Under the pieces are notes generated by a model. It had not been told where the DNA came from, ran no database searches, and was given only the letters and a program-made list of their open reading frames with translations. Both the position numbers and the translations under genes were made by a program. Positions 26,190-63,809 of a stretch of DNA of 64,000 nt are shown here, in pieces. Origin of the DNA: Crambe crambe (Eukaryota; Porifera; Demospongiae; Poecilosclerida; Crambeidae); contig OZ004588.1 of the NCBI GenBank assembly GCA_963924555.1, forward strand, positions 3,534,001 through 3,598,000, in the 5' to 3' direction. Every line of letters begins with the position of its first letter. Positions within the stretch are counted from its first letter, which is position 1.

Positions 26190-26660
26190 GAAAACAGACC
26201 AGGAACAAGTAAGGGAAAAACATTTCTATGAAATCAAAAAAATGTAGGGATGACCATTGCTCAAAAGGTAAGGAAACAAGGGTAGGGAGTGGAAATGGGA
26301 TCAATCTTTGTTCTGTATATCCAGCCAACGATCCCTACATATACGTATATTTCTGCACTATAATCTGTTAATACGTATGTACACTGCAAAAACAGAATTG
26401 TTGTTTCAATAAACATAACAGTTAATTAAGACTAATCATCGTTGAAACAACCAAACAGTTTGTTGTATTCACCAAAAATATAGTGTCATTTTGACAGATT
26501 TCAAATGATTAATCTCACCTAACTAAGCAAGTTTGCTAAAATAACAATTTCGTTTTTGCAGTGTAGGGATTGTTGGCTCGATATACAGGACAAAGATTGA
26601 TCTCATTTCCCTTGTTTCCTTTTTTGAGCAATGGTCATCCCTACATTTTTAAAAATTTTT
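26190..26660. mobile_element. Foldback (long hairpin) element, copy 1
   Basis: The left arm (from about 26211) and right arm (ending near 26655) are inverted copies of each other, with landmarks such as TGTAGGGATGACCATTGCTC and its complement. The same hairpin sequence occurs at 37760-38075. The loop of this copy is enlarged by a 182-bp nested insertion. Confidence 0.8.
26382..26563. mobile_element. Nested MITE with TA duplication
   Basis: It begins CACTGCAAAAAC and ends GTTTTTGCAGTG, flanked by TA on both sides (26380-26381 and 26564-26565). The second hairpin copy at 37.9 kb has the uninterrupted site TATGTAGGGATT. TA duplication suggests a Tc1/mariner-type element. Confidence 0.85.
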
Positions 26661-29012: not shown

Positions 29013-29233
29013 GTGTGAGAGGATGATCAGGTCTGAACTGGTGCAGTTGTGGAAGTCTCGGGTCCAGTACCTGAGGCAATATTATTGCTTCAATGGCCAT
29101 AGACCAAAGCAGAGAGGCTACCCCGTCCTTTCCCGCCATGTCTGGTTCATCCCTTTCATTTTGACTGCATGGTGGTTGTTGATAGCTGTCATCTTTTTAT
29201 ACAAGCTCAAAATGCAGGATTTATTAAACAACG
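29013..29233 (+). CDS. First coding exon: signal-anchor segment
   Basis: The acceptor TCATTTTAG precedes 29013 and the ATG is at 29023. It encodes 70 residues plus one base (phase 1). Residues 1-40 are basic (R3, K11, R13, R18, R27, K29, R31, R38), and a hydrophobic span at about 41-60 (WFIPFILTAWWLLIAVIFLY) follows. By the positive-inside rule the N-terminus should be cytosolic, giving a type II anchor. No cleavable signal peptide is evident. The exon ends ACG|GTGAGA. Confidence 0.65.
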
Positions 29234-29891
29234 GTGAGAATTATGTATAATTTATATTAAGTGTAATGGATAGTTAACCACTATGAATAAAGTTGGTAGA
29301 ATTACTTTGAAGTGTCTAAATGAGCACCTAAATGAAGTGTCCCTACAAAGATTACCATATACCTTGGTCTGTTCATTACAGAGAGTTAGAATGTGTTGTT
29401 ATAGTTACTTATAAGTTTGATCTTATTATAACTAGGGTATTTTGACAAGCATTGGGTAGGCTTTGCCAGTTCCTGATCCTAAGAAAGCAAGCGATTATGT
29501 CCTGTCTTGGTGTGTCTAGCTACCAGGTAGCTCTATAGCTATGATGTTCCATTAAATCACTTCCTGTGTAAAGCTATAAACTTAACTAGTTGCCTATAGT
29601 TAATAAAATCTGAAGTATTAAAAGTCCATTCTTGGTGGTGTTGGTTACGCAATTAAACTTTGATGACATTTAGGTTGCACAGAAGGTGATTTCAGACTTG
29701 TAAATGGAACTGGTACTGAGGGTTGTGTGGAGATATGTCTCAATGGAACTGTGTGTGACCAGATGTGGAGTGACACTGATGCCAGTGTGGTCTACAAGCA
29801 ACTGGGAATGTCATCTACAGGTAGCACTATAACCTAAACTGAATATTTGAGAAGTGGAAATGCAAAATAATTAAATTATTTAATATTGCAT

Positions 29892-29951
<60 letters not shown>

Positions 29952-32900
29952 AGTAGCTCTCTCTTACCCCTCCTCCTTAGAAAAAAAAATAAAGTCAAAA
30001 ATTATGGTACTCATTATTCATAATGCATTCTATAATTCTACAGTATTGAAAGAAAGACGGAGCTTACATAATTATATTTTTGAACTGGATTTTAAAGCTA
30101 ATAATTTCACATAGCCCTACTCAGACTTGATGATTGTCAAAACTCCAAATTGCATGACTGGGACTTTGTACCCACAACCCAATGCTCCATGCTTGCATAA
30201 AAAATTCCATCCAGTCTCTGTGATATATTTTTTCTTCTTCATCATCATCTTCTTTTGGCCAACAGCACTATAAGTATAAATGAACCTATAATATAGAGTT
30301 GACATCACACTAGCCTACTGAGCTGTCTGCGTTTAACTTTTCTGAGCATGGCTTAGAAATAGGACATGGGTTATAATTATGATAGCAGCAAAGTACATAG
30401 TCTAGTAGTTAGTATTGAGATGGGAAGAATAAACTAAAGTGCTTGTAAATCAGAAACCTTATATTACATCATAGAAAATTTCTTTGAGCTATTATAATTA
30501 TTTTTATTTCTACTAATGAGATAAAATTGAAATACTTATACTTAACTCTTTTAATGCTCTGTTTTCTATAGGTGATATCACAAGATACTTGCTTGCTTTG
30601 AACTTCCTGCTGGTATTGTTGTGGTGGAAGCTTGCCATTACTGAATCTGAAGGAACGCTTAGACCTCACCTATATAAAGGCCCCTGTGGTTCTATGTGCA
30701 CCAATCACAAGCTTCAATATGGCTGCACTACTGCATACAAGAATGCTTCCATAAACACTTTACCACCCCTTCATGATGACTGGAAGTGGTATCGAAGAAG
30801 AAGATCTCTTTTCATCATCCACTATTCCGACCTTCAAGTGTTGGCGCCATTAACATTACTATTGTGTGGTGATGTTGAAACTAATCCTGGTCCTGGTGAG
30901 TATGTTACTTTATATTCAGTGTGTATTCAAGCAAGTGTATGAGAATCAAGTGTCTATATACGTACACAGTATGTGGGCTAATAATATACCAGAGAAAATT
31001 AATAGTATTCATGGCCACAAATGGCTGATTTTGTAACCTGATAGCTACTGTATGTCATAATATGCTAGTCTGTGCATTGTACTAGACTGTATATCAACTA
31101 TGTGGTAATAATGTACCAACTAAAACTCTTAATGCTATTTCATGTATTCTGAATTCATAATTCGGTGAGTGAGCATAGCAATCAAGCTGACTCTGAGGCT
31201 AACCCTCAGCGTATGTGCAAGGGTTATAGTGTGTGTCGTATGTGTATCTGTTACATCCATTACGAAGCCAGTAGTGGTTATAGTGCTTCAATTTCAGCAA
31301 TAACAATGTCTAGACGATACTCTTCAGTGCTTAATTTTTTTGATAAAGGCTTTATTCCTGAAACTATATGTTTGTCGACCATTACCTACTCATCTATAGG
31401 TGAGCTCTGTGTCTGTGGTACCCATTCATGAGTGTTATGATTTAAATAAATAGACTATTATATAATCATGATGGGTGGAGTTTCATACTGATGTTATGAT
31501 TTTATACATTAGGAGTTAAAGATAGCAATGGTTCAGATAACCATAGTTAGTGTTTAGTAATCAATAGCTTATAAATTGCCTTAGTACTTCCACAAATTTC
31601 ATTGTTAAATTTTTGTGGTCTGTTCAACAATTATTAACCCTGCACAGTAAAAAGTAACATGAATTTCCCAATTTACAGTAACTAATTACTTGGTTTATCT
31701 ACTAATCAAAATTCCTAGTTCAGAGTGGCTTTACACCTAGCTATGGAATGACATCTGCTGATGGAGATAGAACGATACTTTTACCTAAAATGAATGAACA
31801 TAATATGAACAGTTAATGAAGATTCATCTTATTCAGTGAAAAACAAGGTTCACTTCCCTTCCTGCTCCAAAAGAGCTAGATGACGCTAGAGTATAGATAG
31901 ATCTGTTTAATCAGGTATTTTAATGATGGAATCTTTGTTTTTATAGATATCGATGAAAAGACTCTGCTAAGTGAACTAGTTGCAGTGGAGATCAAGTGGC
32001 TTCAAATAGGCATCCAGTTTGGCATCAAAATAGACAAACTTAAAACATTTGAAGAAAATTACTCTTCCACTTTCAGATGTTTGATGGAAACTGTGAGCTA
32101 TTGGTTGAATGGGAATACAAATATTCCAGTATCCTGGGAATCTGTACTCACAGTTCTTAATGATCCTTCTGTTGATGAGTCAGGAATAGCAAAGCGAATA
32201 CAGGAAAAGTACTGCTCCAAGAAAGGTATATTTTTGTGACCACATAATATTTAAAGCTTAGTGCTATACATTAATATGGCATGATATGAGGGGAATATGG
32301 GGAAATATTTAGTTTAAGGTTGGCTGTATTGGCCCAACTGCAGGGAGGGACAATATACAACCCGAGAACTGAATATTATTTTAATACTTATTGTACACTC
32401 ATGCATTGATATTTCTAGGCCTAGAAGCATCATGAGATAAACTGCTGCTGAGTTCAATTAAGCTTACCTATCACCTTCAGAAATTTCAGCCAATAACTCT
32501 ACTAGGCTATTCCATGCATGTGTAGCCAAGGTGTTGATAATGCCATTGAATATCATGTGAAAATTAAAACTTCCAGATATACAGAAAAAGGAAAATGTGT
32601 TTCAAGGTTGCATGTGGAGAGGTGTATGTGACCTCTTTGTCAAATATTTGCCTAGCTAGCAATCAAGTAACAAATTTTAGCTAGAGATTAGCCGATTGAC
32701 AATGCTATTTTCATATTTCATGAATATAGCCTGTTTGCAGAATTCATATGAATTACTACTAACTATAGAAGACTGCTGTAACTAAGTATATATTATTGTG
32801 GCCAATAATCATTATAATAATGGTATTTTTTTAAAAAGCCTTCCCCATTTTTCATCTGTTAACACAAGCCTTTCTCTGAACTATTACTGTTACAAAACTG

Positions 32901-38900: not shown

Positions 38901-41900
38901 GGGTCCTTCAATATTAATCTCAAGCAAATCATCCAGTGTACTAGTATGGAGACTGGTACGACGTTCAGACTTAATAACCTTCAGATGTGAAAAAGACTTC
39001 TCTACCTTGCTATTGGTAAAAGGTAAGCTAAAAAGAAGCTCACTTACAATAAGAAGATTTGGCCATCTCACTGCATCTTGAGTGGTGTGCAAGGTATACC
39101 AGATCCTTCTGTAGTCTTCTAGCTTACAATCAAGATAGTTTCTGCAATAGTCGATCATGTCATCCAACTCATCATCACATAAAAACAAGCTTGTTCCTTT
39201 CAGTTCCAGTGGCTTTCGAAAAACAGAAGTTATGTAGTGCATAGCTCCCCTAATTTCAGCTTTATCATCAGCTTCCTCCTGAACTTTTTCGGTATCAGAA
39301 CTATCACATCCTTCCACAACCATAGATACCTTTGCTGGTGCAGCCCAACTCCGAGTGTCTAGGAAAGCCAAAATAGACCTCAACAACTCAGCATCAGACC
39401 AAGCTAACCTGTCCCTAATCTTACAATCAAGTTTCTTCAGGTCAGATACAGCCACAGAAATGCATCTAGTGAGCATGCTATCTGTATATTGGGCAAGAAC
39501 ACTACCTTGATAAAGCTTTCCACCACTACCGTTGGTCGAAATCCTGGATAAAACAAGTTTCACCGTTGGCCACTGAAGAGGGTCTTGCTGGACCATAGCC
39601 TGAAGGGTACTCACAGACTTAAGGATGCTTTTAATTCCTTGTACTATATCAACTCTTTTGTCATCTTGGAGAACCAAGCTCAGAAGGGAAGGTGGCTTAA
39701 GAGCATCAACATACAAAGCACAAGCAATAATGAACTTTCCACAAGACCACTTCTTCAGGTATCCTTTAAGTTGTGCTCTGTCAGCTGATTTTAGAGTACT
39801 ATCTTCTGCTAAAGTGGTAAGGTGAGTTATATATGCTCCATATCGATCAATAACCCGCTGAAGAGTTCTTCTTTTATAATTTATCCATCGTGTTCCTTGG
39901 CATTTAATGGGCAAGTTACCTCCTTTAGGGATATCAAAAAACTCCCTTAAATCTTCAGCAATAGATTCAAGCTCACGTGACTTTTTGGGGGATTTCTTGT
40001 ACAAATAGTACAGTCGCAAAAGCATTTCATTGACTTCATTGAAAAGAGGACTGGTAAAAGAATCTTTGCATGCTAACTCAAGTCTGTGCGAGAAACACCA
40101 AGCCCAAAAGAGCCAAGGGAACATAGACTGTAATTTCTCTTTAACACCATTATGACAACCAATGTTGACAGAGGCCCCATCCGTACCCCCACCTACTAGT
40201 ACTGGTTTTCCATCACTGAAGATAATATCCACATCATTATCTTCATCTTGGTGAATATCAATACAAAGCCTGCTCAATGCTTCTTGCAAACAATCTACTA
40301 AACCCTCAGCTGTGATATGCTGAGGACTAACAACTGCTAAATAGCATGTAGCAGATCTAATTTGGTGAGCAACCTCATCTTTTTCACAGTAAACTATGAA
40401 AATTACCTCCTGTTCAAGGTTGCCAGCATCAGTGGATCCATCCATGAGAAAGCTAACAAACTTGACGCGGGCAAGACCATGCAAGAAAAGCTTTCTTTGA
40501 GCCTCAGCAATGAAGTGAGTAAACACTTTGGCAGAATCAGTTGTCTTGTAGGAGTGTCCTAGATGCACTCCATGGTGCTCTGACAAGGCATGAAAAGTTG
40601 GATACTTGACAAAGGTCAAGCTTTCCCTTGCTAGTACATAGCAAATTTCGAACTTTCTCTTCAGTTTAGCCTTCTCACCTTCATCTAGCACTACCAGAGA
40701 CCGAACGATAGGAGCGTAATCTTCAAGAGGACTCCCCCTAGCTTTTTCACGATCAGAATCAAAGCGCTGCATCGAGGTGATGTGCTGATCACTTGTTGCG
40801 TGATCCACGATGTTACTTGTCTTGTGGTTGGTGGAGCCAACAACCCAAACACCAGTGTAGTTTCTCATTCCTTGAATCTTGTCCTTGTATTTTCTACAAA
40901 CTTCACACCATAGCGTAGAAACCGAATTTTTATCAGACTTTTCTCGATCACACCTGAGCCACTCCAAGCAGCGGTGCCTAGGATTGAATTCTCGCTTCCA
41001 CTTTTCGAATATTGCCACTTTAGCTTGCCTTTTAGGCTTCTTTTTTGTTCCTGCAGAAGATTCTCCTTCACTAGAGCTAACAGAAGAACTGTTAAACAAA
41101 TGCTTCCTAGCTTGTTCGGCCATTTTGGCCTGGCTAAATCGAGTTTGAGCGGCATGTGATCTCATTTGATAGGAAAAGGGTCGTTTTCCGACCGCTCAAT
41201 TAGCACTGAGTAGGTATGGTCAAAATCACTGTGCACCATTTTAGGGGAGTGGGGACCAACCACCCCCCCCCCCCCCCCCCCCCCCCCGAATATGTTAGGG
41301 AAAGTCCAACTTTTGAACTTTGTGGATGTCACCATCTTATTCACCCATAATCTCGACTGTAGGGTGTGTTAGGGAGTGCCAAATTAAACAGCTGTGGGTC
41401 TTTTCCATAGGAGCTGCTGAGTCAGTTTGGGGAGTCCAAAACTCACGGATTTTCACCTACTGAGCAATATGTATTGATATATTTTCACTAAGTTGTGGTT
41501 AATATGGGTACATCCCTGCTGATATCTATTAATTAGTGTGTCATTGATATTTTGTTTGTAGCTCCTCCACTGAGCTTAAGCAATGTTGTTGCAGTCCTAC
41601 ACAAACTTCCGTGGAGCCATGTTGGTGTAATACTGATAATCCCCCGGACTAAGTTAAATACTATCAAAGACGAGTGTGATACGGAGGAAAGACTTGTAGC
41701 CATTGTTAGGTACTGGTTACTAAATCATCCGTATACGTCCTGGAGGAAACTTATATATCACCTTGACGACTGGGACCATTCAGATATAGCAGACAGGATA
41801 CGGAAGTATGCAGAGAAACTAACAGGTTAGTGAGAGCTTCAAACATATTGACATATTATGTACATGAATAGGTTGCATGTGCAGTTAAAACATTGCTGAC

Positions 41901-44900: not shown

Positions 44901-47900
44901 CATTCCTACTCCACTGTCTGATATCATAAATATAGTCTCGTGGGCCAATCCTTTACCAAAATACACCTCCCGCCGCACTGATATCAACGGAAGCTGTTGA
45001 TATTGAATTAGCCAGGGGCTGCTAAAAAAACTGTAAAGAAATATTGTTCTGTGATCATGAAGTTCCGAATACTTATTAGAGCATGCGCAACTCACATGTA
45101 CACTTTACTTATGTGGGGGTCACTTGACCCTGAGGGGGGTCGTTTAACCCTAGATTAGAGTGACCTCTGGGTCACTACACCCTAGGGTAGAATGACCGGG
45201 GGTCACTATACCCTCCAACACCGTATCTAAATAGTCCCCCAGCAAAAGTGGCCTACCACGCTTTCTTTCAGGAAGCTCATCCACTCATTATTATCTGTTT
45301 TCCGTTTCTTTCTCACACTTTCAAGGTAGTCCTTGATCGAGATGGTACTACTGTTGATTTTCACCCTCAACGTTCAAGAGAAATGTGCAGCAGCTGCTGA
45401 AACTCCATGCTGACTGCATATCTGCCCATATCAGCACAATCCTTAGGACTATATTAATAGAATTGTCATCTTTTTCCTAAGCTAGCTTAGTTACCTACGT
45501 AAGTATATACTTCATATATGGACCACGTTTTTTCTGTTTCTTAGCTTCAACCATCACTTTGTCCACTTCCTTATTAGCGAGCGCTACTGCCCTCAAGGTC
45601 ATAATGTTGGATAAAGATCCACTGGGGCTTGGAAGTCCATCCTTAGCCTTGAAATACTTCCGTAAAGACATGTCTCGAGTATGTCAGAGCCACGTGTTAC
45701 CATAATTTAAATTTTCATACAAATATAATTTCTGGTAAGTAGTTTTATTCAGACAATTTAATTTTGGAATACTTCCAACTTCCGAAAATATTTAATTTTT
45801 GAATTTTTCTGGATCTACAGTAACTAGTATCAATACTCTAAGTGCTAAGTAGATTTTTCAGAGCTATCTAGATCTTGGTTAGTAGGTGAATGCACTGCAC
45901 ATACAGAAAGGGAGCAAAGAGCATTATAGAAATCCAATAGTCACTGAAAGGACAACAAAGAGGTTCTATGTAACTGAAGTTATTCTATAATGTATGGAAA
46001 TGAGTTGTCTCACATAGCCAGCCTCTTGATTACAACACTGAGATCACTAGCATATGTTAGGAAATGCTATCGTAGAGGTTTTGTCCCTAGGACCAGAAGA
46101 GGTGTGATTGAGTGAATTAGACTCTTGCTCTCTAATACAATTTCTTTCTTATTTCTTGGCTAGCAATAGTCATGCAAAATGTTAAATTTTAATAATAAGG
46201 TCAGTCAGTCCTATTGAAGAGAGCTGCAAGAAATGTGAACAAACTACGTATAGTAGTAAGAGACTTGCTGTATTCTATATTCTGGAGGAAAGTTTAGTAT
46301 TATTTTGGACAACATCTAGGGGATGAAATTTCCTCTACACCTCCCCCCCTTATGGTTAGTTAGACACAAGAATTAGGTAGTTTGAGATTTCCATGCAATG
46401 GTTAACAGTGACTTCAAAATGTTTGACCTCGTAACTTCCCCTCTAAGTCGAAAATCCTCTTATCTGTATGCTTTGGTACATTATGAAAGAGCCACCTTTG
46501 GAAAAGCTGGACCATCTACAGCTACTTTAATTAGGTATTGTGTCTCTGAGAGTTTGAGTTGAGCATTTGCATGTGATGATTATTTTACATATAGCTACAC
46601 CATAGAATATGTGGTTCATGATGCGAAGACTGTCAGTTCAGCAGACTAGATCCACCCTTACATCCTCTTACCTGTACAGAAACTATTGTGTCTATAATTG
46701 ATTTTGTATTTAAAATCATTGAGTGGGAAATGGGAGTGGTTATGGGAGGAGTATTTTAGTTCCTCCTCAAAGAAGAATCACATGCCTTCACTTTTTCTAG
46801 ATTCACCTACTGAGCATACAAAGTCACAAAAATGGCATACAATATGAGTGCATAATTTGTTTACTGTGCAATGAAGACATGTGAACTTGACCAAACCCAT
46901 TTCTTGCATGTTAGTGATGCTATTCTGCAATCAAGTGAATGGCTACACAAGACATGGAAGTGAGGGGATCATGCTTTTAGCTAAGTAGGAACCTCACCTT
47001 TTAAATAGCCTAATAGATCCATTGATAGCATAAACTTCCCCTCCCCTCCCACATTGATTATTAATTGTATTATCCTCAAACATGGACACACCCACACACA
47101 AACATCCCAGTACCTCACTCTCTATATGGAACCCTCCATGGTGCTTGACTAGTACTGTAAATTCTGTGGGTGTGTCTTATCTGAGGTAATAGAAGTGTTT
47201 GTGTCCTCCCAGACCCCAGCCTCACCTCTCACAGTTTGCTGGCTGCTCTGGATACTGTGGTGGACTATGACTTGGATGTTGTACTTGAGATACCAATGAA
47301 GAAGATGAGGTCACGTGATGACAGTATAAAATACTACATCGACACTCATCCAAACGCTGGATGGAATCACCTGGCTGGGTCACTTCTCTGCGAGAAACAA
47401 CAGACAGCTCTTAAGAAAGTGAAGGGGAATGTTACAGCTGATAAAGGTAAGTGTGTACATACTAAGTGAGGCAAGGGTGAATATAGTCATGTGATTGGTC
47501 AAGAGTGGATACTCTTATGAATAAATGACTCTCCAAGTTCAGATAAATATGTTTTTTCTCACTAGAACACATTCCACCATGTATCCACCACTACCAGAGT
47601 GTACACACTCCAAAATACACTTTTCCAAGTTAAGAACACGCTCCTTATAAAGTAAAGTTTTCCCAGTATCTGCCAATATGTGGTAGTCCCAGGGTTTCAT
47701 ACAGCAGAGAGGGAAAGGGGAGAAACCCACCTCTGATTAAAATTCCCCCTAAACACTTAATGTGTCTTAAAAATAGTAATCCTGAAAAGGAAACTATCTT
47801 CCCTTCCACAGGTAATTGTACATGAAGTGGATTCATAATACAGCCACAACTTTGCTTTGAATTTTAAGTGTACATGACAGTTGTAGAAAGTAATTAAAGT

Positions 47901-53900: not shown

Positions 53901-56900
53901 TACTGGTCAACACTGAATTTTTCTTCCTGGTGTAACTGGAATGCATAGCCCTCAAATTACAATGGTACTTGTGGCACTCTGCACATGACACCTCTTTGAC
54001 CAACAATTCACATTTTGTATGTCTGACAGTGCAAGGGTAAAGATTGCCATCCATAGTTACACAATGGTTGTCCAGATAACACACGAGTTCTTTATTGGGG
54101 GACAAAAATTTTCCTGTACGCAATTCTGCCATCTTAACAAAATTGGCATCAGGATTCCCTGCACACACATTATGACTCATTATGAGGGAGAGCAACACCT
54201 TGAATGTATCAAATGTCAGTGTGCTAGGGATGTCAAAGAGGGTTGAACACTGTATTGGGTTAACCATTTGGCTATGTATATGGACCATCCATGTTAAGTC
54301 CAAATGCACAATCAATGACTTTGTTATAACTATAGGCTTAGTAGAAGGATGCTTTTGATGATGCAATCTAATAATCCTCAGTTCTGTCAAACTCTCATTC
54401 ATTTGAAATACCCAATCAAGTGAAAAAGATTGTGATTGTAAGTGAAGAAGAAAACCTTGAAGGGTATCAGAAGTACACTAAAATAGAACAGTGACAAGAT
54501 ATCAAGTAAAACAAGTCTGATATGCTGTCATAATACCTTAACAGCATAAGTTTCTTTCCTCTTCTTTGGGGGGGCTAAACGTGACTTGCTTCTTGATCCA
54601 TGCCCCTTCTTTCCTCGTTTACCAGGCATTATAGCTACAGGTGTAATATTTTTTGTTTATTTTTATGCCCCTATTTTCTAAGCACTTCTGAGACACCTGC
54701 TATTCTTACCCCCCTAACTTTATTATATCATAACTGGATCTTAATTTATGATTATGTTCAATACAGCAGCTCAAAGTACTTGTTGGATTATGTGTGCAAT
54801 TTGCTATGTCCTAATTGGAACAAGTTTGTAAAAAATATACCTAAGATAAATAGAAGAAAGAATAATGACTAGATTACTTCATGCATACATAAATGAAAAA
54901 GAAGCTGTAAAGTTACTTGGCTAAAATATGCAAGCAGTCTGGAGTTTATGTGCTCACAAATTCCATGCAACCTACTCTTCCTACTAAACTCTAGTTAAAG
55001 TTGCGTAAGCAGGCAATACTTAAACTATATTTTGTTTAAGTAAGTGGTTAGTAATGAGGCTACTACAAACTTACCACTTTGGACGAAAGAAATCGCTAAA
55101 CTTGATGCAGTCAGCCTGTAACTAAGGCCATCCCAACATGGAAATGATTATTTTCGCGAAAAGCGCATGTGGCAAACGTGCCAATTAATTGAGAGGTGGA
55201 GTTTCCTATCCAGGGTGCGCAGTATATAGTATCTATGGTAGCACTGTATAGGAATCGTGATATTTTTGTACATCCAAATAGCAATTATTAAAGGGGGTGG
55301 TAAGATTGTTCCTATTCTGTTTCATTAAAGTGGCATTTTTAGTTGAAGCAATAAGCTTCTCTATAGTCATGGCTATGAGATACTGTATATGGAAATGATA
55401 CATACCTACATCAGGTCAGAGCATGCATACTACAACAGGGGTCAAAGGTCGGATATCTAATGTTGGTGGCAATCTTCAAACTATAGGAGTCAGTTTTTCT
55501 TCTTTTTTCTTTTCTTTTTGTGTATTTGTGTAAGAATATTATTAAAGGGGTCATATCTATCACTCCATTGATTCTTTTGCCAACAGATACAGTTCTTAGT
55601 ACAACTGATTTTGTTCGGAGGGTTTTTTGTGGTTTCTCTATTTTACACTTAAGTCCAATTATACACTCCTTGTTGTGTACATATGGCTAGAGGGTGTGAA
55701 CCAGGATAGGTAAGGTTGTGCATCAGTGTGTGTGTGTGTGTGTGTATGGAAGGCATTATTTCATTATTATTATTATTGAAATGTGCAACACAAGTCTTTT
55801 TATGTCAAAGCAATTCCCACTATATAAAGTACCAGTCATTCATCTCTTGATATTAACACTAAGTGCATGCATACACCTCATATTGTCTTTAGAGCATAAA
55901 CTATAGTAGACTGAAGTAATACATGCTCATACTATTTCCATTTGTTCCTGTTACTTGTTGAATGGACTTGTTTTTGTTGCTCAGCTCATGTTTTATTCTC
56001 TATGTTCTCTCCCACAGACCCCTCCCTCACCCTCACTAATCTCACTCAGCTGCTGGAGGATGTGGGGAATTTGTTTGATGTGTCTGATTATCTAGACATC
56101 CCCTACTCAGTGCGTAATAGTATCATGAGACAACAGTCCAGTATATCTGAACGTAGGAAGGCTTGTTGGGAGTGGTACCTGAACAACCACCCATGCCCTT
56201 CATGGCGTCACATTGCTAATGCTCTGTATATGGGTGAGGAGCATGGAGTGCTAGAAGTGTTGAAGAGTCGCTACCTTAAAGGTGAGTCTGGTTCTCTGTG
56301 ATGATTACTGGAATGGTTGATTTGCATGTGTCCTGTCCCCAACTATGTAAAAACATCATCCTATATGCCACTGTTATTAATTAAATTTCTTCTCTCATAA
56401 TCAATTGTTGTTGTTATTGTTGTTGTTGTTGTTGTGATTGTTGTTATTTTTGTTTGTTTTAATTCATTGGGTAGATGATATGAATATCGTATATTAGTCA
56501 TCTGCTATGGAGTACTGGCAGGAAGTTACATATAAAAATACAATACTCTTTTTGCAGAAATATTATTTTCTGCTGGTTAAGCCACTCTTTTTTTAGGAAA
56601 GAAGAATGAAGGAACCATTTGTAGTAGAAAATGGTAGAAGAGATGCAGTCTTGCTGATATAGCTACTTACATTCAAGAATGAGCCTTCAACAAGAAAACA
56701 GTATTCTAGCATAGCTGTACTACTCCACTGACAGTTGATAGAATTCTTTCTCTGCATACCTATTACATGGTTTTATAGGCAGAGCTGTAACAAGATAAGA
56801 CAAATACAGCTTGGACATGAAGCAGGTTGCCGAAATTTGTCAGCTGATTCAACCTGTGCCTAATTGCTTCAGCCAGTTAGCAGATCGAGGTTATAGTGGT

Positions 56901-59900: not shown

Positions 59901-62900
59901 AGATCGTCGGTCAGTACAGTGCAGTAGCCTCGTCCCCAGGCTCTAATATTACATCTATAGGATAGCTCTCATGTACCAGTTCTTTCTCAGTGTGCGGATG
60001 GTGTGTTTGTTTAGCTGGGACAACCCTGAACAAGGATCAGCAGCAAGTTCGTTGGTGAATAGGATGCCTGCTTCCTATGGAGCAATTCAGTTGTTGCAAA
60101 ACAGAAAGTGGATGATTTTAGAGTGAGACTTCAAACCAAGCTCTAAAGCTATCTATAGACTCACGAGGGTCTTGGCTCAGCTAGCTAGTGAACGGAGAGA
60201 ATCCAGCACAACAGCTATGAGGTAGGCTTTTAAGCTTATGGACTTGGAATAATGAACTAACTAAGCTATTTTCACTACCTCTTCAATACCGTTTTGCAAC
60301 AACTGAATTCAATTGGACACATTGAAGGTTTTCCATCTACAATGAGCTTGCTATTACCTCATAGAAAAGAATCACCTCTTCCTTGCATTGATGTATTTGA
60401 GCATTTAATTGGGCAATAATTTATAAGGTTTGTACGATAAAGCACTAGCTATCGAAATATCAAAATCTCAAACTGCATCTTGGAATCAATTAGCTCTTTG
60501 TGGAATCAGTGTACATAACATTGTGTGATATTATTGTGCGTAAGTGGTTGAACTTTCAATGCTACTACAGTTTGATAAGTAAATGTTTGAGTGGTGTTAG
60601 TTTGATAGAAAGGCACTTTAGGAGTTATCAGGTTTTCCATTTTGGTAACCATTGACTGGCACTGAAGTCAGCAGCTCCAGCTGAAGTGGTACTAGGTAGC
60701 TAGCCTGTGAATGGCTAGCAAACTCTTGATTGCTGATTGAATGCATAGCCATTTCTTGACCTTATGTAATAAGGAGCTGACTACTACTAACATGATTAGC
60801 ACTTACTTTCCTAGGTCCAATGCACTTGGCAGCTAGTGAGCATAAAGAAAGAAGAAAGGAGATTGTTTTACTTATCATTCCACTATTATATCTGGAATAT
60901 AGTAGAATGTCCTTACATGTGCATACAAAAAATTAATATGTAGCTAATGTCCAAGAAAAAAGTAAATTTTCAATTGCGGGATAGTATGCAATGATGTTCT
61001 ATGTCTGTTGTGTGTGTAACACATACCAAGTAGAAAAAAATTAAATTTGAGTGGGTGTATTAGTAATATAATTTATACATGCACAATGACATTCGTCTGT
61101 TTTTTTATTTCATTGACTACCTGTAGGTTCCGCTGAGTCACGTCGACTGTATAACGAAGCAATGAAGCAGGGACACGTAAAGTCCCAGATCAACAAAGCC
61201 CTCCTTTATGGGGCTCCAGGAACCGGAAAATCAAGTTCGATTGACCTTTTCGTTGGTAACCCTCCGAGACAAGCCAGAATAAGCACTCCTTTAGCTGTTC
61301 GTCCGATTACAATGATCCAAATGGGAGTCACCAAGAAGGAGTGGAAAAAACTTCATCCAAAAGAACGGAAAGAAATTCTAGCAAGGGCCATATATGCTCA
61401 GCTTCATGCCAGCGATACAAATTCAGGTGAAGATTGTGAGGCATCAGCTAATTCTGGTGAGGATTCTGATTTTGATGAAATATTAACGAATCCTGAGCAT
61501 AAAGAAGCTCGTAGTAAAGAAGATAAGTCAACGCGTGATGTTCATCCACGAGTACACCTGTCCAGTCCAACACCTGCTAGAAAACTGAAGAAAGGTTCTC
61601 AATCAAGGGAAAAGATTTCACTACCATCCATTAGCACACATGAGGAACTAATGGAACTATTGGATGAGATCTCCAAATCAGATGAAGCCTTACCTGTCTT
61701 CCGAAAGGTCAAATTGATTGACTCTGGTGGACAACCACAATTTCATGAGGTGTTACCTGTATTTCTTCGTCGCATGTCCCTCTACATATTCGTCTTCAAG
61801 CTGTCAGAAGAACTCGCTGCCAAGCCCATGGTAGAGTACTTTGGGAAAGATGGGAAGTGTGTGGGGACACCTTACCGATCAGCTCAGTCCAACGAGCAGC
61901 TATTGAAGCACTGTCTTCGCACTTTGCACACTCACAGATCATCTCCCGATACTAAAGGTGAGTGCTCCAAAATCATGATCATAGGGACCCACAGGGACGA
62001 AGAACACCTGTGCACGACCGAAACACGAGAGGAGAAGAACAAGAAGTTAGAAGAGCTGTTACTTCCGATGTTCCAAGAGGAAGTCATCTACTACAACCTG
62101 GCAGAAAATGAGGTGATCTTTCCAGTCAATGCCAAAACTCCTGAAGAGCTTGATAAGGATACAGCTAGAGATATCCAAAGTGTAGTCCTAACAAAGTGTA
62201 TGCCTGATCCCATTGATGTGCCCCTTCAGTATTTCTCTTTGGAAATTATCCTTGAAGAAGTCAGCCTTTCTTTAGACAGAGGGGTATTGAGCAAAGAAGA
62301 ATGCCTTCGAGCAGCAGATAAGCTTTTCTTTAATGAGCATACACTGGATGCAGCTCTCCAGTTCCTAGATGAAATTTCATCAGTCTTTTATTTCCCCGAG
62401 GTTCTGGATGGTGTTGTATTCACTAACCCTCAAGTCCTCTTGGATAAGGTAACTGAGTTGGTAGAGATTACCTATTGCTTGAGAGAAAACGTTGGTTGTA
62501 AAACACTTCGTGCACTTTCTGGAGGCTGGAAGAAGTTTAAAGATCATGGCATTGTTAGCTTAGAGCTTCTGCAAGAAAAAGAGTTCGAGAAGCATTACGT
62601 GCCTGATATCTTTACTCCTGTTGATCTGGTCAAGCTCTTTAGAAAGTTACTCATCATAGCTGACTTTAGTGCTTCAGAATACATCATGCCTGCTCTTCTT
62701 CCTGTCCTTGTTAAGGAAAAGGTTTATAAATACCGTCTTCCAGATGATTCTATTTTAGCTCCCCTTGCTCTGTCCTTCCCCCTTGGAGGGCCTCGTCTCG
62801 GCACTTACTGCAGTCTCACATGCTTCTTAGTCTCTCCCGACAACCACTATCCTTCTCCATGGAAGATTGTGCTTCTCCCTCACTCCAACACTCCAGCTTG

Positions 62901-63664
62901 CCTCAGTCGAAACTGCACCATGTTTTCTGTTCCTTGCTTGCCTGGCTCTGTTACACTTATAGACACCTTTACACATTTCGAAATCCATGTGCACACATCT
63001 CAGGCATCACACCTCAAGATGTGTTCCTTTGTCTCTCAAGCCATATTTGCAGGTTTGAAGAAAGCAACAGTGGTCCTTGGCTACAACAACTCCATCCCAT
63101 CGAAAGCACTCCTCTGTCCGTGTGGTAATGGAGACCCTCATGTTGCTACATTTGGAGATGGAGAATGGATCTGCACTCAACATCCCAATGTATTTGGAGA
63201 GCTCACCTCTAGACAATTGCCATGGTGTGAACAAGAATTTCATCCCCCTACAAATGGTATGTCCATGCATATATACATACATACATACATACGTACATAC
63301 ATACATACATACATACATACATACTTGTATGCATTATCACGTTAAGATCCCACAAACCTTTCTACTTTTACCTTATTCTCTATTATTTATAGTTCCATTG
63401 AACCTAAAGATAGTACAAAGAGAGTTGTGGGATGTCAAGTGCAAGTGGTATAACCTTGGTCTGGAACTTGACTTGGACCCACCTACACTCACTGCTATCA
63501 AGAGCAACTTCCAAGGAAATGTTGAAGATTGTTTCAGAGAAGTTCTTCTGAAGTGGCTTGAGGTTGCACCTTGTCCATCATGGAAGGCACTGGTGAAGGC
63601 CCTGAGGTCTCCTGCTGTGGACTTCCCTCAAGCAGCCTCAAGGATCGAAAGCAAATACACATGA
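29023..63664 (+). CDS. Candidate multi-exon gene: membrane anchor, SRCR part, 2A-like site, death domains, GTPase
   Basis: Proposed coding exons: 29023-29233, 29674-29820, 30572-30895, 31947-32225, 34315-34599, 41562-41825, 47213-47446, 56018-56281, 61127-63256 and 63393-63664. Every junction is GT/AG in phase 1, every internal exon is a multiple of three, and the joined frame is open for 1469 residues. A further symmetric exon (31187-31399) is possible. Known biology: death domains are adaptor modules, SRCR domains bind ligands outside the cell, and 2A peptides cause ribosome skipping. Inference: one message gives a membrane protein and a separate death-domain/GTPase protein. Uniform phase 1 also means neighbouring genes could be wrongly joined. 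The large introns (up to 8.6 kb), filled with transposons, are the weakest point of the model. Confidence 0.45.
29674..29820 (+). CDS. Half SRCR domain exon
   Basis: Phase 1-1, 49 codons, residues ~71-119 of the model. The order FRLVNGT, then VEICLNGTVCDQMW, then DASVVYKQLGM matches the N-terminal half of scavenger-receptor cysteine-rich domains (RLVNG, G-x-VE, G-T-VCD, W, DA-VVC-RQLG). Cysteines at 72, 88, 92 and 98 are present, but the usual C in VVCRQLG is Y111. Two NGT sites (81 and 94) could be glycosylated. The second half of the domain is not found in the following sequence, so it is either missing or an exon I could not recognise. Confidence 0.7.
29895..29950. repeat. (AG)n microsatellite
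   Basis: About 28 AG units in the intron after the SRCR exon. Confidence 0.95.
30572..30895 (+). CDS. Exon ending in a 2A-like ribosome-skipping site
   Basis: Phase 1-1, 108 codons, acceptor TTTTCTATAG and donor CCTG|GTGAGT. It starts with a hydrophobic stretch (YLLALNFLLVLLWW, model residues 125-138) followed by a Cys-containing, Asn-rich part and a basic run RRRR at 194-197. It ends APLTLLLCGDVETNPGP (211-227), an exact match to the 2A consensus D-V/I-E-x-N-P-G-P with the usual Leu-rich lead-in. Skipping would occur between G226 and P227. 2A-like peptides are known in non-LTR retrotransposons and in immune-receptor genes of sea urchins, so the exon may derive from a retrotransposon. The splice sites fit a host gene. 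No reverse-transcriptase coding sequence follows. Confidence 0.75.
31187..31399 (+). CDS. Possible optional exon after the 2A site
   Basis: 71 codons, open, with a good phase-1 donor (CTATAG|GTGAGC). The only acceptor that fits phase 1 (CAATCAAG at 31186) lacks a strong pyrimidine tract. The encoded peptide is Cys- and Ser-rich (CKGYSVCRMCICYIHYE) with no known domain. Including or skipping it keeps the frame. Confidence 0.25.
31947..32225 (+). CDS. Death domain exon 1
   Basis: Phase 1-1, 93 codons, acceptor GTTTTTATAG and donor AAAG|GTATAT. The pattern is that of a death domain: EIKWLQIGIQFGI, then MEtvSYWLNG, then IPVSWESVLTVLND, then GIAKRIQEKY. The central W and the closing amphipathic helix are typical of this six-helix fold. 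If translated after 2A skipping, it would be the first folded module of the downstream product. Confidence 0.75.
33466..33683. repeat. Inverted repeat, arms of about 45 bp
   Basis: The left arm (33466-33509) and right arm (33637-33683) are imperfect complements around shared runs such as GATGTCACAAGCACCA and CACCATTT. Possibly a small foldback element. No target duplication was identified. Confidence 0.6.
34315..34599 (+). CDS. Pro/Asp-rich linker exon
   Basis: Phase 1-1, 95 codons, acceptor CACCAAATCAG and donor AAAG|GTACCT. Low-complexity, with repeated DPPxxDPPxLP-like units (for example ESDPPPDDPPNLP and FDPPDPPS) and a strongly basic end (RRRKQRMKRKFK). No fold is expected. It may act as a flexible spacer with docking or nuclear-localisation-like sequence between death domains 1 and 2. 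The symmetric phase and open frame support a true exon. Confidence 0.6.
34600..37759. other. Intron sequence, no gene seen
   Basis: About 3 kb of AT-rich sequence. A GC-rich patch (CGGACGGCCGCGCGCGCCGC) lies at 37037-37056 and a TTA/TTC-rich microsatellite at 37224-37278. No exon with matching phase-1 splice sites was recognised. Confidence 0.45.
37760..38075. mobile_element. Foldback element, copy 2 (near-perfect palindrome)
   Basis: Arms of about 130 bases (37788-37920 and 37945-38068) are almost exact complements. The same peptide-like reading (MKKDVGMTTAQKSKETRRME) appears on both strands for this reason. It is the empty-site reference for the nested insertion in the 26.2-kb copy. Confidence 0.9.
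38448..41208 (-). mobile_element. hAT transposon, apparently autonomous
   Basis: An 11-base perfect inverted repeat, CAGTGCTAATT (38448-38458) and AATTAGCACTG (41198-41208), encloses a long intact transposase frame. CAGTG fits the hAT end consensus (YARNG). The flanks share AGTAG (38439-38443 and 41209-41213), but no clean 8-bp duplication is visible, so the exact ends could be off by a few bases or the duplication has mutated. It sits in the intron between the linker exon and death domain 2, antisense to the host gene. Confidence 0.75.
38697..41165 (-). CDS. hAT-family transposase, ZNF862-like, intact
   Basis: 822 codons without interruption, from ATG at 41165 (or the in-frame ATG at 41123) to the stop at 38697. 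An N-terminal Ser/Lys-rich part precedes a zinc-finger of TTF/BED type (C87, C90, H122, H128). The RNase-H-like core follows: DGSTD at 242-246, TDGAS at 328-332, and CFSHRLELACKD at 357-368, the C-x2-H-x-L-x-L motif of hAT proteins. The C-terminal dimerisation region starts near 716 (SKVEKSFSHLK). Similar proteins include vertebrate ZNF862-type domesticated transposases. The TIRs around it argue for a transposon rather than a domesticated gene. Full length and lack of stops suggest recent activity. Confidence 0.88.
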   Translation of the reverse strand: MRSHAAQTRFSQAKMAEQARKHLFNSSSVSSSEGESSAGTKKKPKRQAKVAIFEKWKREFNPRHRCLEWLRCDREKSDKNSVSTLWCEVCRKYKDKIQGMRNYTGVWVVGSTNHKTSNIVDHATSDQHITSMQRFDSDREKARGSPLEDYAPIVRSLVVLDEGEKAKLKRKFEICYVLARESLTFVKYPTFHALSEHHGVHLGHSYKTTDSAKVFTHFIAEAQRKLFLHGLARVKFVSFLMDGSTDAGNLEQEVIFIVYCEKDEVAHQIRSATCYLAVVSPQHITAEGLVDCLQEALSRLCIDIHQDEDNDVDIIFSDGKPVLVGGGTDGASVNIGCHNGVKEKLQSMFPWLFWAWCFSHRLELACKDSFTSPLFNEVNEMLLRLYYLYKKSPKKSRELESIAEDLREFFDIPKGGNLPIKCQGTRWINYKRRTLQRVIDRYGAYITHLTTLAEDSTLKSADRAQLKGYLKKWSCGKFIIACALYVDALKPPSLLSLVLQDDKRVDIVQGIKSILKSVSTLQAMVQQDPLQWPTVKLVLSRISTNGSGGKLYQGSVLAQYTDSMLTRCISVAVSDLKKLDCKIRDRLAWSDAELLRSILAFLDTRSWAAPAKVSMVVEGCDSSDTEKVQEEADDKAEIRGAMHYITSVFRKPLELKGTSLFLCDDELDDMIDYCRNYLDCKLEDYRRIWYTLHTTQDAVRWPNLLIVSELLFSLPFTNSKVEKSFSHLKVIKSERRTSLHTSTLDDLLEINIEGPSFESFSAGSAVDLWWAQTVRRPNQKSRKDYRPREGSSSSTDNDSQFYKPTDEYSLDDWDQWFNNNSE
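41263..41287. repeat. Poly-C run (25 bases)
   Basis: Homopolymer just outside the hAT element; length may be unreliable in an assembly. Confidence 0.9.
41562..41825 (+). CDS. Death domain exon 2
   Basis: Phase 1-1, 88 codons, acceptor TTTGTTTGTAG and donor ACAG|GTTAGT. It opens PPLSLSNVVAVLHKL and includes WSHVGVILIIP, LVAIVRYWLLNHP, YTSWRKLIYHLDDW and DIADRIRKYAEKL. The NHPxxSWRxL signature is shared with death domain 4 (NHPCPSWRHI), so these two are close relatives. Death domain 3 is more divergent. Confidence 0.8.
42373..42753 (+). pseudogene. Broken HIRAN-like gene, single exon
   Basis: An ATG at 42373 opens a frame reading MAESVAESQCEV, then CIRGYHEYRAIW, that stops near 42498. The +1-shifted frame carries on from about 42487 with GEPTNTIDQYAVAVI, VVGHLPKKISRV and LPQGGLEIPC up to 42753. 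Both halves together look like one protein with a HIRAN-type fold (NPxDxxAVAV, VGHLP and GLEIPC signatures common in invertebrate genomes), split by one frameshift. There are no introns. It lies in an intron of the large gene and may be a transposon-borne or retroposed copy. Family call from memory of these motifs. Confidence 0.5.
43230..45671 (-). pseudogene. Pogo/Tigger-like transposase, broken and split
   Basis: Minus strand from ATG at 45671: MSLRKYFKAKDGLP, KKRGPYMKY, a ~50-base candidate intron (45498-45449), then PKDCADMGRYAV, TISIKDYLESVRKKRK and RPLLLGDYLDT. After the palindromic insert it continues with YLLKLREAGGVVSA (44083-43898), then ALVIMDNFKGQ and LLPANTTDLLQPVD (43837-43460, DDE core), then LEPADLCLPAMKELG to 43230. 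The order matches the helix-turn-helix plus DDE layout of pogo-type transposases. There are at least three frameshifts and an in-frame stop, so it is dead. No terminal repeats were identified. Confidence 0.8.
44086..45222. mobile_element. Palindrome-rich insertion with GGGTCA repeats
   Basis: It interrupts the pogo-like gene between codons reading YLDTV and MVVQAYL. Both ends consist of related 15-20 base repeats of the form GGGTCAYT, then ACCCTAGGGT, then AGTGACCC, themselves palindromes. The two ends are inverted relative to each other (44110-44200 and 45110-45215). The middle, with poly-T/poly-G at 44811-44838, codes nothing I recognise. A foldback-type element with internally repeated ends is likely. 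I cannot see a clear target duplication. Confidence 0.7.
45690..47212. other. Intron sequence, no gene seen
   Basis: AT-rich with no supported exon until the acceptor at 47211-47212 (GTGTCCTCCCAG). Confidence 0.5.
47213..47446 (+). CDS. Death-domain-like exon 3 (short)
   Basis: Phase 1-1, 78 codons, donor AAAG|GTAAGT. It starts PSLTSHSLLAALDTV, followed by DLDVVLEIP, DDSIKYYIDTHPNAGWNHLAGSL and a Lys-rich end. It is shorter than the neighbours and the last helix is poor. The layout and the HPxxxWxxL signature still place it in the same family. It may be a decayed or specialised module. Confidence 0.6.
47980..49650. repeat. 28-bp minisatellite, about 50 units, split by a MITE
   Basis: The unit CCACTATGTGGAGGTCCCAG plus TGTGTCCA is repeated nearly identically. 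Variants include CCACAGTATGG (about seven), a TCCTCC version and shortened 17-bp units near 48841 and 49231. Since 28 is not a multiple of three and the unit has no stops, all three plus-strand frames stay open for hundreds of codons; these are not genes. The half-unit CCACTATGTGG is an inverted repeat. It lies in the intron between death domains 3 and 4. Confidence 0.97.
48561..48780. mobile_element. 220-bp MITE inserted in the minisatellite
   Basis: The ends CAGAGCCGCCGGAA and (complement) CAGGGCCGCCGGAA pair over 14 bases with one mismatch. The 5-base run CTATG is duplicated at both edges (48556-48560 and 48781-48785), and the regular array resumes at once after it. Much more GC-rich than the surroundings. 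Confidence 0.88.
49660..50558. other. Intron sequence, no gene seen
   Basis: Unique-looking sequence between the minisatellite and the P-like transposon. Some open minus-strand stretches near 49760-49980 have no recognised domain. Confidence 0.4.
50680..51599 (+). pseudogene. Second gene of the P-like element (accessory, frameshifted)
   Basis: ATG at 50680 starts MDPDAILRFNNMLEEI. Near 50905 a run of AAAGAAAAG loses the frame. The shifted frame continues VFLGFIGLGHSYKLPE and FPSLPTGPFLWQI up to about 51040. A third segment, from about 51045 to 51599, reads CLDDIEKNAIRYASGYVLRK, then GGLLHVTDEAFWLFCEIE and ILRGHSLRNRF. The parts look like one protein with one or two frameshifts, or one frameshift plus an unrecognised intron. 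I recall similar proteins (with NAxRYxAGYV and RGGLxxVxDE) in invertebrate genomes but know no function. Its position inside the TIRs makes it part of the transposon. Confidence 0.6.
51700..54629 (-). CDS. P-element/THAP9-like transposase, nine exons
   Basis: Minus-strand exons: 54629-54537, 54477-53653, 53597-53341, 53287-53057, 53011-52714, 52661-52521, 52469-52254, 52193-52061 and 52001-51700. All have GT/AG introns, and the joined frame of 831 residues is open. Key parts are a basic N-terminus (MPGKRGKKGHG), a Cys/His cluster (SCAECHKYHC), a coiled region (RMKEVLHNKERQIQRWKKR), WHPLFIRWCLNIAL, the catalytic-core stretch VFDEMKIHEDLVFDRNG, the insertion-domain part (HVVAFVCDGAKPNRKF) and the C-terminal FNQDPLEAFFGKQRMRGG shared with THAP9. 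A classic THAP zinc finger at the N-terminus is not seen. The exon 7 donor was chosen to keep the frame (AAAGGT|GTGATG) and is non-standard. Confidence 0.85.
55245..56017. other. Intron sequence before death domain 4
   Basis: No exon seen. Contains a short (TG)n run near 55720-55744 and ends in a good acceptor (TTCTCTCCCACAG). Confidence 0.55.
56018..56281 (+). CDS. Death domain exon 4
   Basis: Phase 1-1, 88 codons, donor AAAG|GTGAGT. It reads PSLTLTNLTQLLEDV, LFDVSDYLDIP, ACWEWYLNNHPCPSWRHI and VLEVLKSRYLK. Very similar in layout to death domain 2. If the model is right, it is spliced directly to the GTPase exon at 61127 (codon G|GT). Confidence 0.8.
56281..57680. repeat. Tandem duplication with 1040-bp period
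   Basis: The intron start GGTGAGTCTGGTTCTCTGTG at 56281 recurs at 57321, and both copies continue through matching sequence for about 360 bases, including the TGTT-rich microsatellite. The second copy carries a donor-like sequence but no death-domain coding sequence before it. It is preceded instead by a partial copy (56662-57290) of the upstream duplicated block. Confidence 0.85.
57675..57870. other. CpG-rich islet
   Basis: A ~200-base stretch with many CG dinucleotides (GCGCGTAATAATGCG, GACGCGTAGTAACG, TTAACGCGCAG, TTTTCGCGAAG), unlike the AT-rich surroundings. Not present in the copy A block. It could be a promoter, an unmethylated element or an inserted transposon piece. Confidence 0.5.
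58140..60045. repeat. Second copy of the duplicated upstream block
   Basis: Matches 70-1745. A short extra segment near 59340-59520 contains small internal repeats (CTGCTAACTGTCA, ACCCTACATCGCTGC) not seen in copy A. Confidence 0.85.
60063..60309 (-). repeat. Inverted counterpart of 2032-2252
   Basis: Reverse complement of the copy A segment. Followed at 60291-60309 by a direct copy of GTTTTGCAACAACTGAATT, then by sequence collinear with 3251 onward. Confidence 0.8.
61127..63664 (+). CDS. ROC/COR-like GTPase with terminal death domain, copy B
   Basis: Exons 61127-63256 and 63393-63664 (acceptor TATTTATAG, stop 63662-63664). The G1 (GAPGTGKS), G3 (DSGGQ) and G4-like (THRD) motifs, the acidic insert and the COR-like part are nearly identical to copy A up to the codon for residue ~520 (LLPVL). 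Beyond that the copies differ in roughly three of ten residues. The donor AATG|GTATGT lies in a (CATA)n microsatellite intron, which keeps the frame open for some distance past the true exon end. The last exon encodes a different death domain from copy A (VQRELWDVKCKWYNLGLEL, CPSWKALVKALRSP). This is the 3' end of the large candidate gene. Confidence 0.87.
63271..63323. repeat. (ATAC)n microsatellite
   Basis: About 12 ATAC units with one CGTAC interruption, in the short intron before the last exon. Confidence 0.9.
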
Positions 63665-63803: not shown

Positions 63804-63809
63804 AATAAA
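63804..63809 (+). terminator. Polyadenylation signal AATAAA
   Basis: Canonical hexamer 140 bases after the stop codon of copy B, followed by an A-run at 63823-63831. Confidence 0.65.

What the first reader, a model, noticed from the sequence alone, without database searches (positions are those of the whole stretch)
30843..30895. 2A-like ribosome-skipping peptide at an exon end in a candidate immune/death gene
The exon ends LLLCGDVETNPGP with the splice donor just after it. Skipping would release a membrane product (anchor + half SRCR, 226 residues) and start a separate product with proline, carrying the death domains and GTPase. With a cytosolic N-terminus, a single anchor would put the death domains outside the cell; the 2A break would avoid this, as would the second hydrophobic stretch at residues 125-138. 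A 2A site joining an extracellular-type module to intracellular signalling modules is, to my knowledge, unusual. 2A-like sequences in non-LTR elements and sea urchin receptors are established, and a retrotransposon origin of this exon is possible.
Basis: partly seen in the sequence, partly recalled or inferred. Interest (0 to 1): 0.85.

Follow-up and report, generated by a model that had tools for sequence, protein, structure and literature searches.

The report
Ribosome-skipping exon in death-domain gene
An animal gene that looks like an immune or cell-death gene carries, at the very end of one predicted exon, a short peptide code of the kind that makes ribosomes release one protein and begin another, here placed between a membrane-anchor module and a death-domain/GTPase-like module.

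Summary
The only NPGP in six frames of the window lies in LLLCGDVETNPGP, 30856-30894; expected chance hits for D[VI]ExNPGP: 4e-5. It ends a predicted 324-nt exon (30572-30895) with a strong donor one base later. The exon fits a nine-exon model from ATG 29023 to TGA 63664: 1374 aa, no internal stop, every intron phase 1, AATAAA 140 nt after the stop. The motif splits it into 226 aa (anchor, first half of an SRCR domain, second hydrophobic stretch, 2A) and 1148 aa starting Pro-Asp and running straight into a death domain (AlphaFold pLDDT 92.9; the top 22 Foldseek rows are death domains, but best E is 0.076), then further death-domain-like exons and a weakly matched Roc-like GTPase region. Best reading: a working 2A exon separating a cytosolic death-domain/GTPase protein from its membrane leader. 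Charges favour a two-pass leader, so skipping would choose free versus tethered. Closest precedent: sea urchin 2A-DEATH-NACHT-LRR receptors. No endonuclease/reverse transcriptase was seen in the following intron. Genome, transcripts, conservation and skipping itself could not be tested.

The parts
29023..29233 (+). predicted exon 1: ATG, basic N-terminus (K+R 8, D+E 1 in residues 1-39), hydrophobic anchor residues 40-58
   Evidence: open frame, donor ACG|gtgaga, Kyte-Doolittle 2.36 over 19 residues
29674..29820 (+). predicted exon 2: first half of an SRCR domain (profile positions 7-44 of 100), third Cys position replaced by Tyr, second half not found
   Evidence: Pfam SRCR E 2.3e-5, 25 bits, just under the cut-off of 26.1; 22 PDB sequences, SRCR proteins, E up to 1: 1.1e-6 for a single-domain chain (1by2); the top 5.3e-17 sums several SRCR domains of one chain, whose best single stretch has 20.5 bits
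30572..30895 (+). predicted exon 3: 324 nt, phase 1-1, second hydrophobic stretch (residues 125-143), basic RRRR, 2A at its end
   Evidence: no match in Pfam at E 1, PDB at E 10 or PHROGs at E 10
30856..30894 (+). LLLCGDVETNPGP, 2A/StopGo-like core; predicted break between Gly 226 and Pro 227
   Evidence: matches D(V/I)ExNPGP and the L-rich (A/S/C)G upstream class described in PMC12846837
31947..32225 (+). predicted exon 4: death domain 1, directly after the 2A proline
   Evidence: AlphaFold pLDDT 92.9; top 22 of 41 Foldseek rows are death domains, best prob 1.00, best E 0.076; no Pfam Death hit
41562..41825 (+). predicted exon 5: death domain 2
   Evidence: Pfam Death 22.8 bits, cut-off 22.6, E 1e-4
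47213..47446 (+). predicted exon 6: death-domain-like 3
   Evidence: alignment only, 15% identity to exon 4; no Pfam hit
56018..56281 (+). predicted exon 7: death-domain-like 4
   Evidence: alignment only, 18% identity to exon 4; no Pfam hit
61127..63256 (+). predicted exon 8: Roc-like GTPase region (P-loop GAPGTGKSS, DSGGQPQF, GTHRD; motifs recognised by eye)
   Evidence: Pfam Roc E 0.004, 17.7 bits, below its cut-off of 27; AlphaFold model failed, pLDDT 29.9
63393..63664 (+). predicted exon 9: death-domain-like 5 and stop TGA; AATAAA at 63804
   Evidence: Pfam Death E 0.11, 13 bits, below cut-off

Best explanation
Exon 3 is a coding exon of an animal gene of immune/death-signalling type, and its last codons encode a functional 2A (StopGo) peptide. 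During translation most ribosomes fail to join Gly226 to Pro227: they release a 226-residue membrane leader (two-pass hairpin, half-SRCR loop outside) and go on to make a separate cytosolic protein, Pro-Asp-death domain(s)-Roc-like GTPase-death domain. Ribosomes that do not skip make the same signalling protein tethered to the membrane. The exon thus sets the ratio of free to tethered signalling protein. Shown: motif, candidate exon ends, phases, open frame, first SRCR half, predicted death-domain fold of the next exon. Inferred: splicing, skipping, topology, signalling role.
For: Full core motif and L-rich upstream class. Phase 1-1 exon in a stop-free 1374-codon model of nine exons with start, stop and poly(A) signal. 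Strong donor at the motif. SRCR half. Death-domain fold directly after the proline. Charges +7/-5/+5 for a two-pass leader. Sea urchin NLRs carry a 2A before DEATH-NACHT-LRR; one such 2A skipped at about 80% in vitro, and a skipping-dead mutant of it sent the reporter into the secretory route (PMC4981915, parts 1-4 of 6 read).
Against: No transcript, genome or related locus was available. Codon usage is uninformative: exon 3 scores 0.12 bits per codon, reached by 10.4% of 462 intron window-frames, and the other six exons scored range from -0.07 to 0.32. 22 of 337 windows of 324 nt have some open + frame. The half SRCR lacks its second half and a conserved Cys, which could mean a decaying gene. 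Donors 29820 and 32225 and acceptor 29674 are weak, and a stop follows at 32237-32239, so the gene may end there at 324 aa. Against the two-pass topology: a glycosylation sequon at residue 177 after the second stretch and a third, weaker hydrophobic window at 199-217 (1.57).
Confidence: 0.57

Rival explanations
1. Exonised retrotransposon leader: the N-terminal end of a 2A-bearing non-LTR element was captured as an exon. It is spliced into some transcripts, and any skipping is a side effect rather than a selected function.
For: 2A-like sequences are known in animal non-LTR elements (PMC4981915; PMC11512398 passages). No second SRCR half was found, and exon 3 sits where it would follow. The window holds much mobile DNA.
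Against: No endonuclease/RT hit in six frames of the following intron; no [YF][AVMIL]DD box in any six-frame segment over 60 aa of the window and no second copy of the exon in the window. Non-LTR copies usually lose their 5' end, not their 3' end (recalled).
Confidence: 0.2
2. Unspliced relic: the open stretch is an old element or pseudoexon inside an intron, and the gene is spliced from 29820 straight to 31947, giving an SRCR-stub/death-domain protein without 2A. All these introns are phase 1, so the frame survives either way; the exon could also be an alternative cassette.
For: Phase-1 symmetry permits leaving the exon out. Coding bias of exon 3 is no stronger than that of a tenth of the intron window-frames.
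Against: Acceptor and donor are among the better ones in the window (polypyrimidine score reached by 9.4% of AGs; donor by 0.31% of GTs). The only in-frame ATG in 30520-30894 is at 30694, after the hydrophobic stretch, so the stretch is not a free-standing ORF start.
Confidence: 0.13
3. Short gene: translation ends at the stop at 32239, so the released product is one death domain of about 98 residues. The later death-domain and GTPase exons belong to another gene.
For: Weak donor at 32225 and an in-frame stop a few codons later; intron 4 would be 9.3 kb with a transposase ORF inside.
Against: Nearest poly(A)-like signals are 324 nt (ATTAAA) and 1127 nt (AATAAA) after that stop. The later exons all keep phase 1. 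I did not search systematically for another start exon for them.
Confidence: 0.1

Closest known systems
Sea urchin (Strongylocentrotus purpuratus) NLR 2A-like signal sequences (Roulston et al. 2016, PMC4981915)
   Same: 2A upstream of a death domain and a nucleotide-binding signalling protein; hydrophobic leader; the core GDVETNPGP of SpNLR2A6 (read by eye from the primer printed) is identical; skipping would divide membrane-route and cytosolic forms
   Different: There the characterised 2A is a 26-residue N-terminus before DEATH-NACHT-LRR. Here it is at residue 226 after an anchor and half an SRCR domain, and the enzyme part is Roc-like, not NACHT
Viral 2A/StopGo peptides, L-rich motif class 2/6 (Li et al. 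2026, PMC12846837; parts 1-2 of 7 and passages seen)
   Same: D(V/I)ExNPGP core with L-rich hexapeptide ending (A/S/C)G; a motif-6 example was active in vitro in that paper
   Different: Viral polyproteins; this is a cellular gene; Thr at the x position where that class prefers Ser
2A sequences of non-LTR retrotransposons (as cited in PMC4981915 and PMC11512398; Odon et al. 2013 not held)
   Same: Same core motif
   Different: No endonuclease or reverse transcriptase found after it here
Engineered 'Molecular Rheostat' (PMC3508920, abstract and outline only)
   Same: A 2A sets the ratio of free (secreted) to membrane-bound product of one gene
   Different: Man-made, with mutated 2A; the anchor lies downstream of the 2A there (recalled, not read)

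Membership tests
2A/StopGo peptides | D(V/I)ExNPGP core | tested here: met
   DVETNPGP at 30871-30894
2A/StopGo peptides | supporting upstream context | tested here: met
   LTLLLCG fits the L-rich (A/S/C)G class described in PMC12846837; compared by eye
2A/StopGo peptides | in frame inside a translated ORF | tested here: inconclusive
   open frame and matching splice phases, but no transcript
2A/StopGo peptides | measured peptide-bond skipping | not testable with these tools
   needs translation assay
Sea urchin-type NLR 2A | 2A upstream of a death domain | tested here: met
   predicted death-domain fold in the next exon
Sea urchin-type NLR 2A | 2A at the extreme N-terminus (26 aa) | tested here: not met
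   2A ends at residue 226-227 in the model
Sea urchin-type NLR 2A | NACHT and LRR | tested here: not met
   no NACHT or LRR hit in the seven predicted pieces scanned; weak Roc instead
2A-bearing non-LTR retrotransposon | endonuclease/RT downstream | tested here: not met
   six frames of 30896-31946 without such a Pfam hit; no [YF][AVMIL]DD in segments over 60 aa
2A-bearing non-LTR retrotransposon | many genomic copies | not testable with these tools
   no genome held; single copy in window
SRCR protein | complete SRCR domain with its cysteines | tested here: not met
   only profile 7-44 of 100; VVYKQLG for VVCRQLG; no second half by regex (a weak test)
Death domain protein | death-domain fold | tested here: met
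   exon 4 by predicted fold and exon 5 by Pfam; exons 6, 7 and 9 not confirmed
Roco (Roc-COR) GTPase | Roc domain above cut-off and COR | tested here: inconclusive
   Roc 17.7 bits against 27 and no COR hit; model failed

The most novel reading that the evidence does not exclude
A natural free/tethered rheostat: a phase 1-1 cassette exon carrying a re-entrant membrane segment plus a 2A, sitting in place of the second half of an SRCR domain. Alternative splicing (exon in or out) and skipping efficiency together would set how much death-domain/GTPase signalling protein is membrane-bound or cytosolic, invented independently of the sea urchin NLR 2A leaders.
Probability: 0.25. Interest if true: 0.78.

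Novelty: new variant of a known kind. Interest (0 to 1): 0.55.

Why it matters
Cellular genes that use ribosome skipping are described as very rare (PMC12846837). Another animal example next to death domains, with a different enzyme module, would suggest that skipping before death-domain NTPases is a recurrent solution for dual targeting of immune receptors. It would also make testable whether retrotransposon-like leaders are domesticated as exons.

Tried and rejected
Considered and dropped. (1) Chance motif: rejected at 4e-5 expected hits. (2) Second SRCR half elsewhere: a handful of regexes in six frames found none in the gene. A Pfam scan of X-masked 10-kb pseudo-proteins (+ strand, 28-48 kb) missed the death domain at 41562 that one search had found, so its silence counts for little. 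(3) Relatives of exon 3 in viral contigs and genome contigs: none (0 of 21 and 0 of 82 pattern stretches confirmed); GTPase alignment in genome contigs: 0 of 141. These are virus and prokaryote collections, so silence is expected. (4) GD[VI]ExNPGP DNA pattern in viral contigs: two hits without L-rich context; by eye neither looks related. One search used a wrongly spaced pattern and is void. (5) Codon bias: uninformative. (6) GTPase structure: pLDDT 29.9, unusable, not searched further. (7) Literature: the listings of ten searches showed no report of a sponge or SRCR 2A. The two papers that hold '2A-like' together with a sponge name use it in gene names only. Passages of PMC6208332, PMC5009743 and PMC8623073 added nothing decisive. 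The library holds open-licence papers only; Rao et al. 2025 (survey of eukaryotic 2A) and Odon et al. 2013 are not held, so this case could already be listed there.

Full report
Observation. The + frame 30520-30939 is open for 140 codons and holds LAPLTLLLCGDVETNPGP. NPGP at 30883 is the only NPGP in six frames of 64 kb, and the expected number of D[VI]ExNPGP under a first-order Markov model of the window is 4.0e-5. The upstream residues LTLLLCG fit the L-rich class ending (A/S/C)G before D that was defined from 1,900 representative viral sequences, with activity shown in vitro for a motif-6 example (PMC12846837: parts 1-2 of 7 and passages seen).

Gene model. Splice sites were examined at each end. 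The chain 29023-29233, 29674-29820, 30572-30895, 31947-32225, 41562-41825, 47213-47446, 56018-56281, 61127-63256, 63393-63664 gives 1374 residues with no internal stop, every intron in phase 1, and AATAAA at 63804, 140 nt after the stop. The donor after the 2A, CTG|gtgagt, is matched or beaten by 0.31% of 3905 GTs. The donors at 29820 and 32225 are weak (5.2% and 6.8% of GTs as good), and the acceptor at 29674 is no better than half of all AGs. Codon usage does not tell exon 3 from introns. The model is therefore a well-formed prediction, not a proven transcript. A shorter gene ending at 32239 (324 aa) is possible.

Modules. Exon 1 is a basic N-terminus and a strong hydrophobic segment. Exon 2 is the first half of an SRCR domain: Pfam E 2.3e-5, 25 bits against a cut-off of 26.1, and 22 PDB sequences of SRCR proteins at E up to 1, with 1.1e-6 for the single-domain chain 1by2; the top value of 5.3e-17 sums several SRCR domains of M130. 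In the alignments printed, Tyr stands where the best-matching M130 domains have Cys (VVYKQLG for VVCRQLG), and the second half was not found (a weak test). SRCR domains of the expanded sponge genes are reported as spread over three exons (PMC10855680, passages), so a half in one exon is not odd, but the missing rest is. Exon 3 has no match in Pfam, PDB or PHROGs. Exon 4 is predicted with confidence (pLDDT 92.9, six-row alignment). Its top 22 Foldseek rows are death domains (p84, Fas/FADD, TNFR1, ankyrins, DR3), with probability 0.97-1.00 in the first 14; none of the 41 rows reached E 0.001, the best being 0.076, and most rows below rank 22 are unrelated proteins. Exon 5 just passes Pfam's Death cut-off. 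Exons 6, 7 and 9 rest on alignment (15%, 18% and 28% identity to exon 4), with one sub-threshold Pfam hit for exon 9. Exon 8 carries P-loop and GTPase-like motifs (by eye) with a sub-threshold Roc hit. It is 88% identical to a second copy at 4374-6539.

How it would work. Net charges around the two hydrophobic segments are +7, -5 and +5. By the positive-inside rule (established knowledge) this means N-terminus inside, SRCR stub outside, and the 2A and everything after it inside. Hence the death domains would be cytosolic with or without skipping, and skipping would decide free versus tethered. Two points speak against the two-pass reading: of three glycosylation sequons, two lie in the outside loop but one (NAS, residue 177) lies after the second segment, and a third, weaker hydrophobic window spans residues 199-217 within the 2A region.

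Known relatives. In S. purpuratus, 85 of 241 NLR proteins are reported to carry 2A-like sequences at or near the N-terminus, 14 of 87 NCBI entries as a 26-residue N-terminus, in proteins of DEATH-NACHT-LRR type. One of these skipped at about 80% in vitro, and a skipping-dead mutant of it sent the reporter to the Golgi and medium (PMC4981915, parts 1-4 of 6 read). The present case shares 2A, then death domain, then nucleotide-binding module, but differs in position, in the anchor and SRCR stub before it, and in the enzyme module. I therefore file it as a new variant of a known kind.

Retrotransposon origin. Six frames of the intron after the motif show no endonuclease or reverse transcriptase in Pfam. 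The window has no second copy of the exon and no [YF][AVMIL]DD box in segments over 60 aa. A wider test needs the genome, which is not held. The origin of the exon stays open; its use as an exon is the better-supported reading.

Organism. Not given and not determined. SRCR, death-domain and Roc-like modules point to an animal. A sponge is my guess from recalled domain combinations, and no call confirms it.

Noticed in passing
4374-6968 and 56660-63664: A second copy of the GTPase-plus-death-domain module (GTPase region 88% identical), with shared flanking repeats (1283-1506 with 59557-59780, 94%; 2057-2256 inverted at 60061-60260, 98%): a locally duplicated gene family.
   Followed up: partly
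38697-41195 (-): 832-codon open hAT-type transposase ORF (zf-C17orf113 and Dimer_Tnp_hAT above their cut-offs) inside the predicted 9.3-kb intron 4.
   Followed up: no
42373-42750 (+): HIRAN-like domain (E 0.0013, 19 bits, below the cut-off of 24.7) in an intron of the predicted gene.
   Followed up: no
about 47900-49660: Long array of a 28-bp repeat unit, interrupted once, open in all three + frames.
   Followed up: no
51703-53031 (-): Transposase pieces in separate frames (TNP-like_RNaseH_N just under and TNP-like_RNaseH_C above cut-off); P-element/THAP9-like by recall.
   Followed up: no
37788-38068: 125-bp near-perfect palindrome (99%, 31 nt between arms), partly related to 26213-26346: probable small inverted-repeat element.
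   Followed up: no
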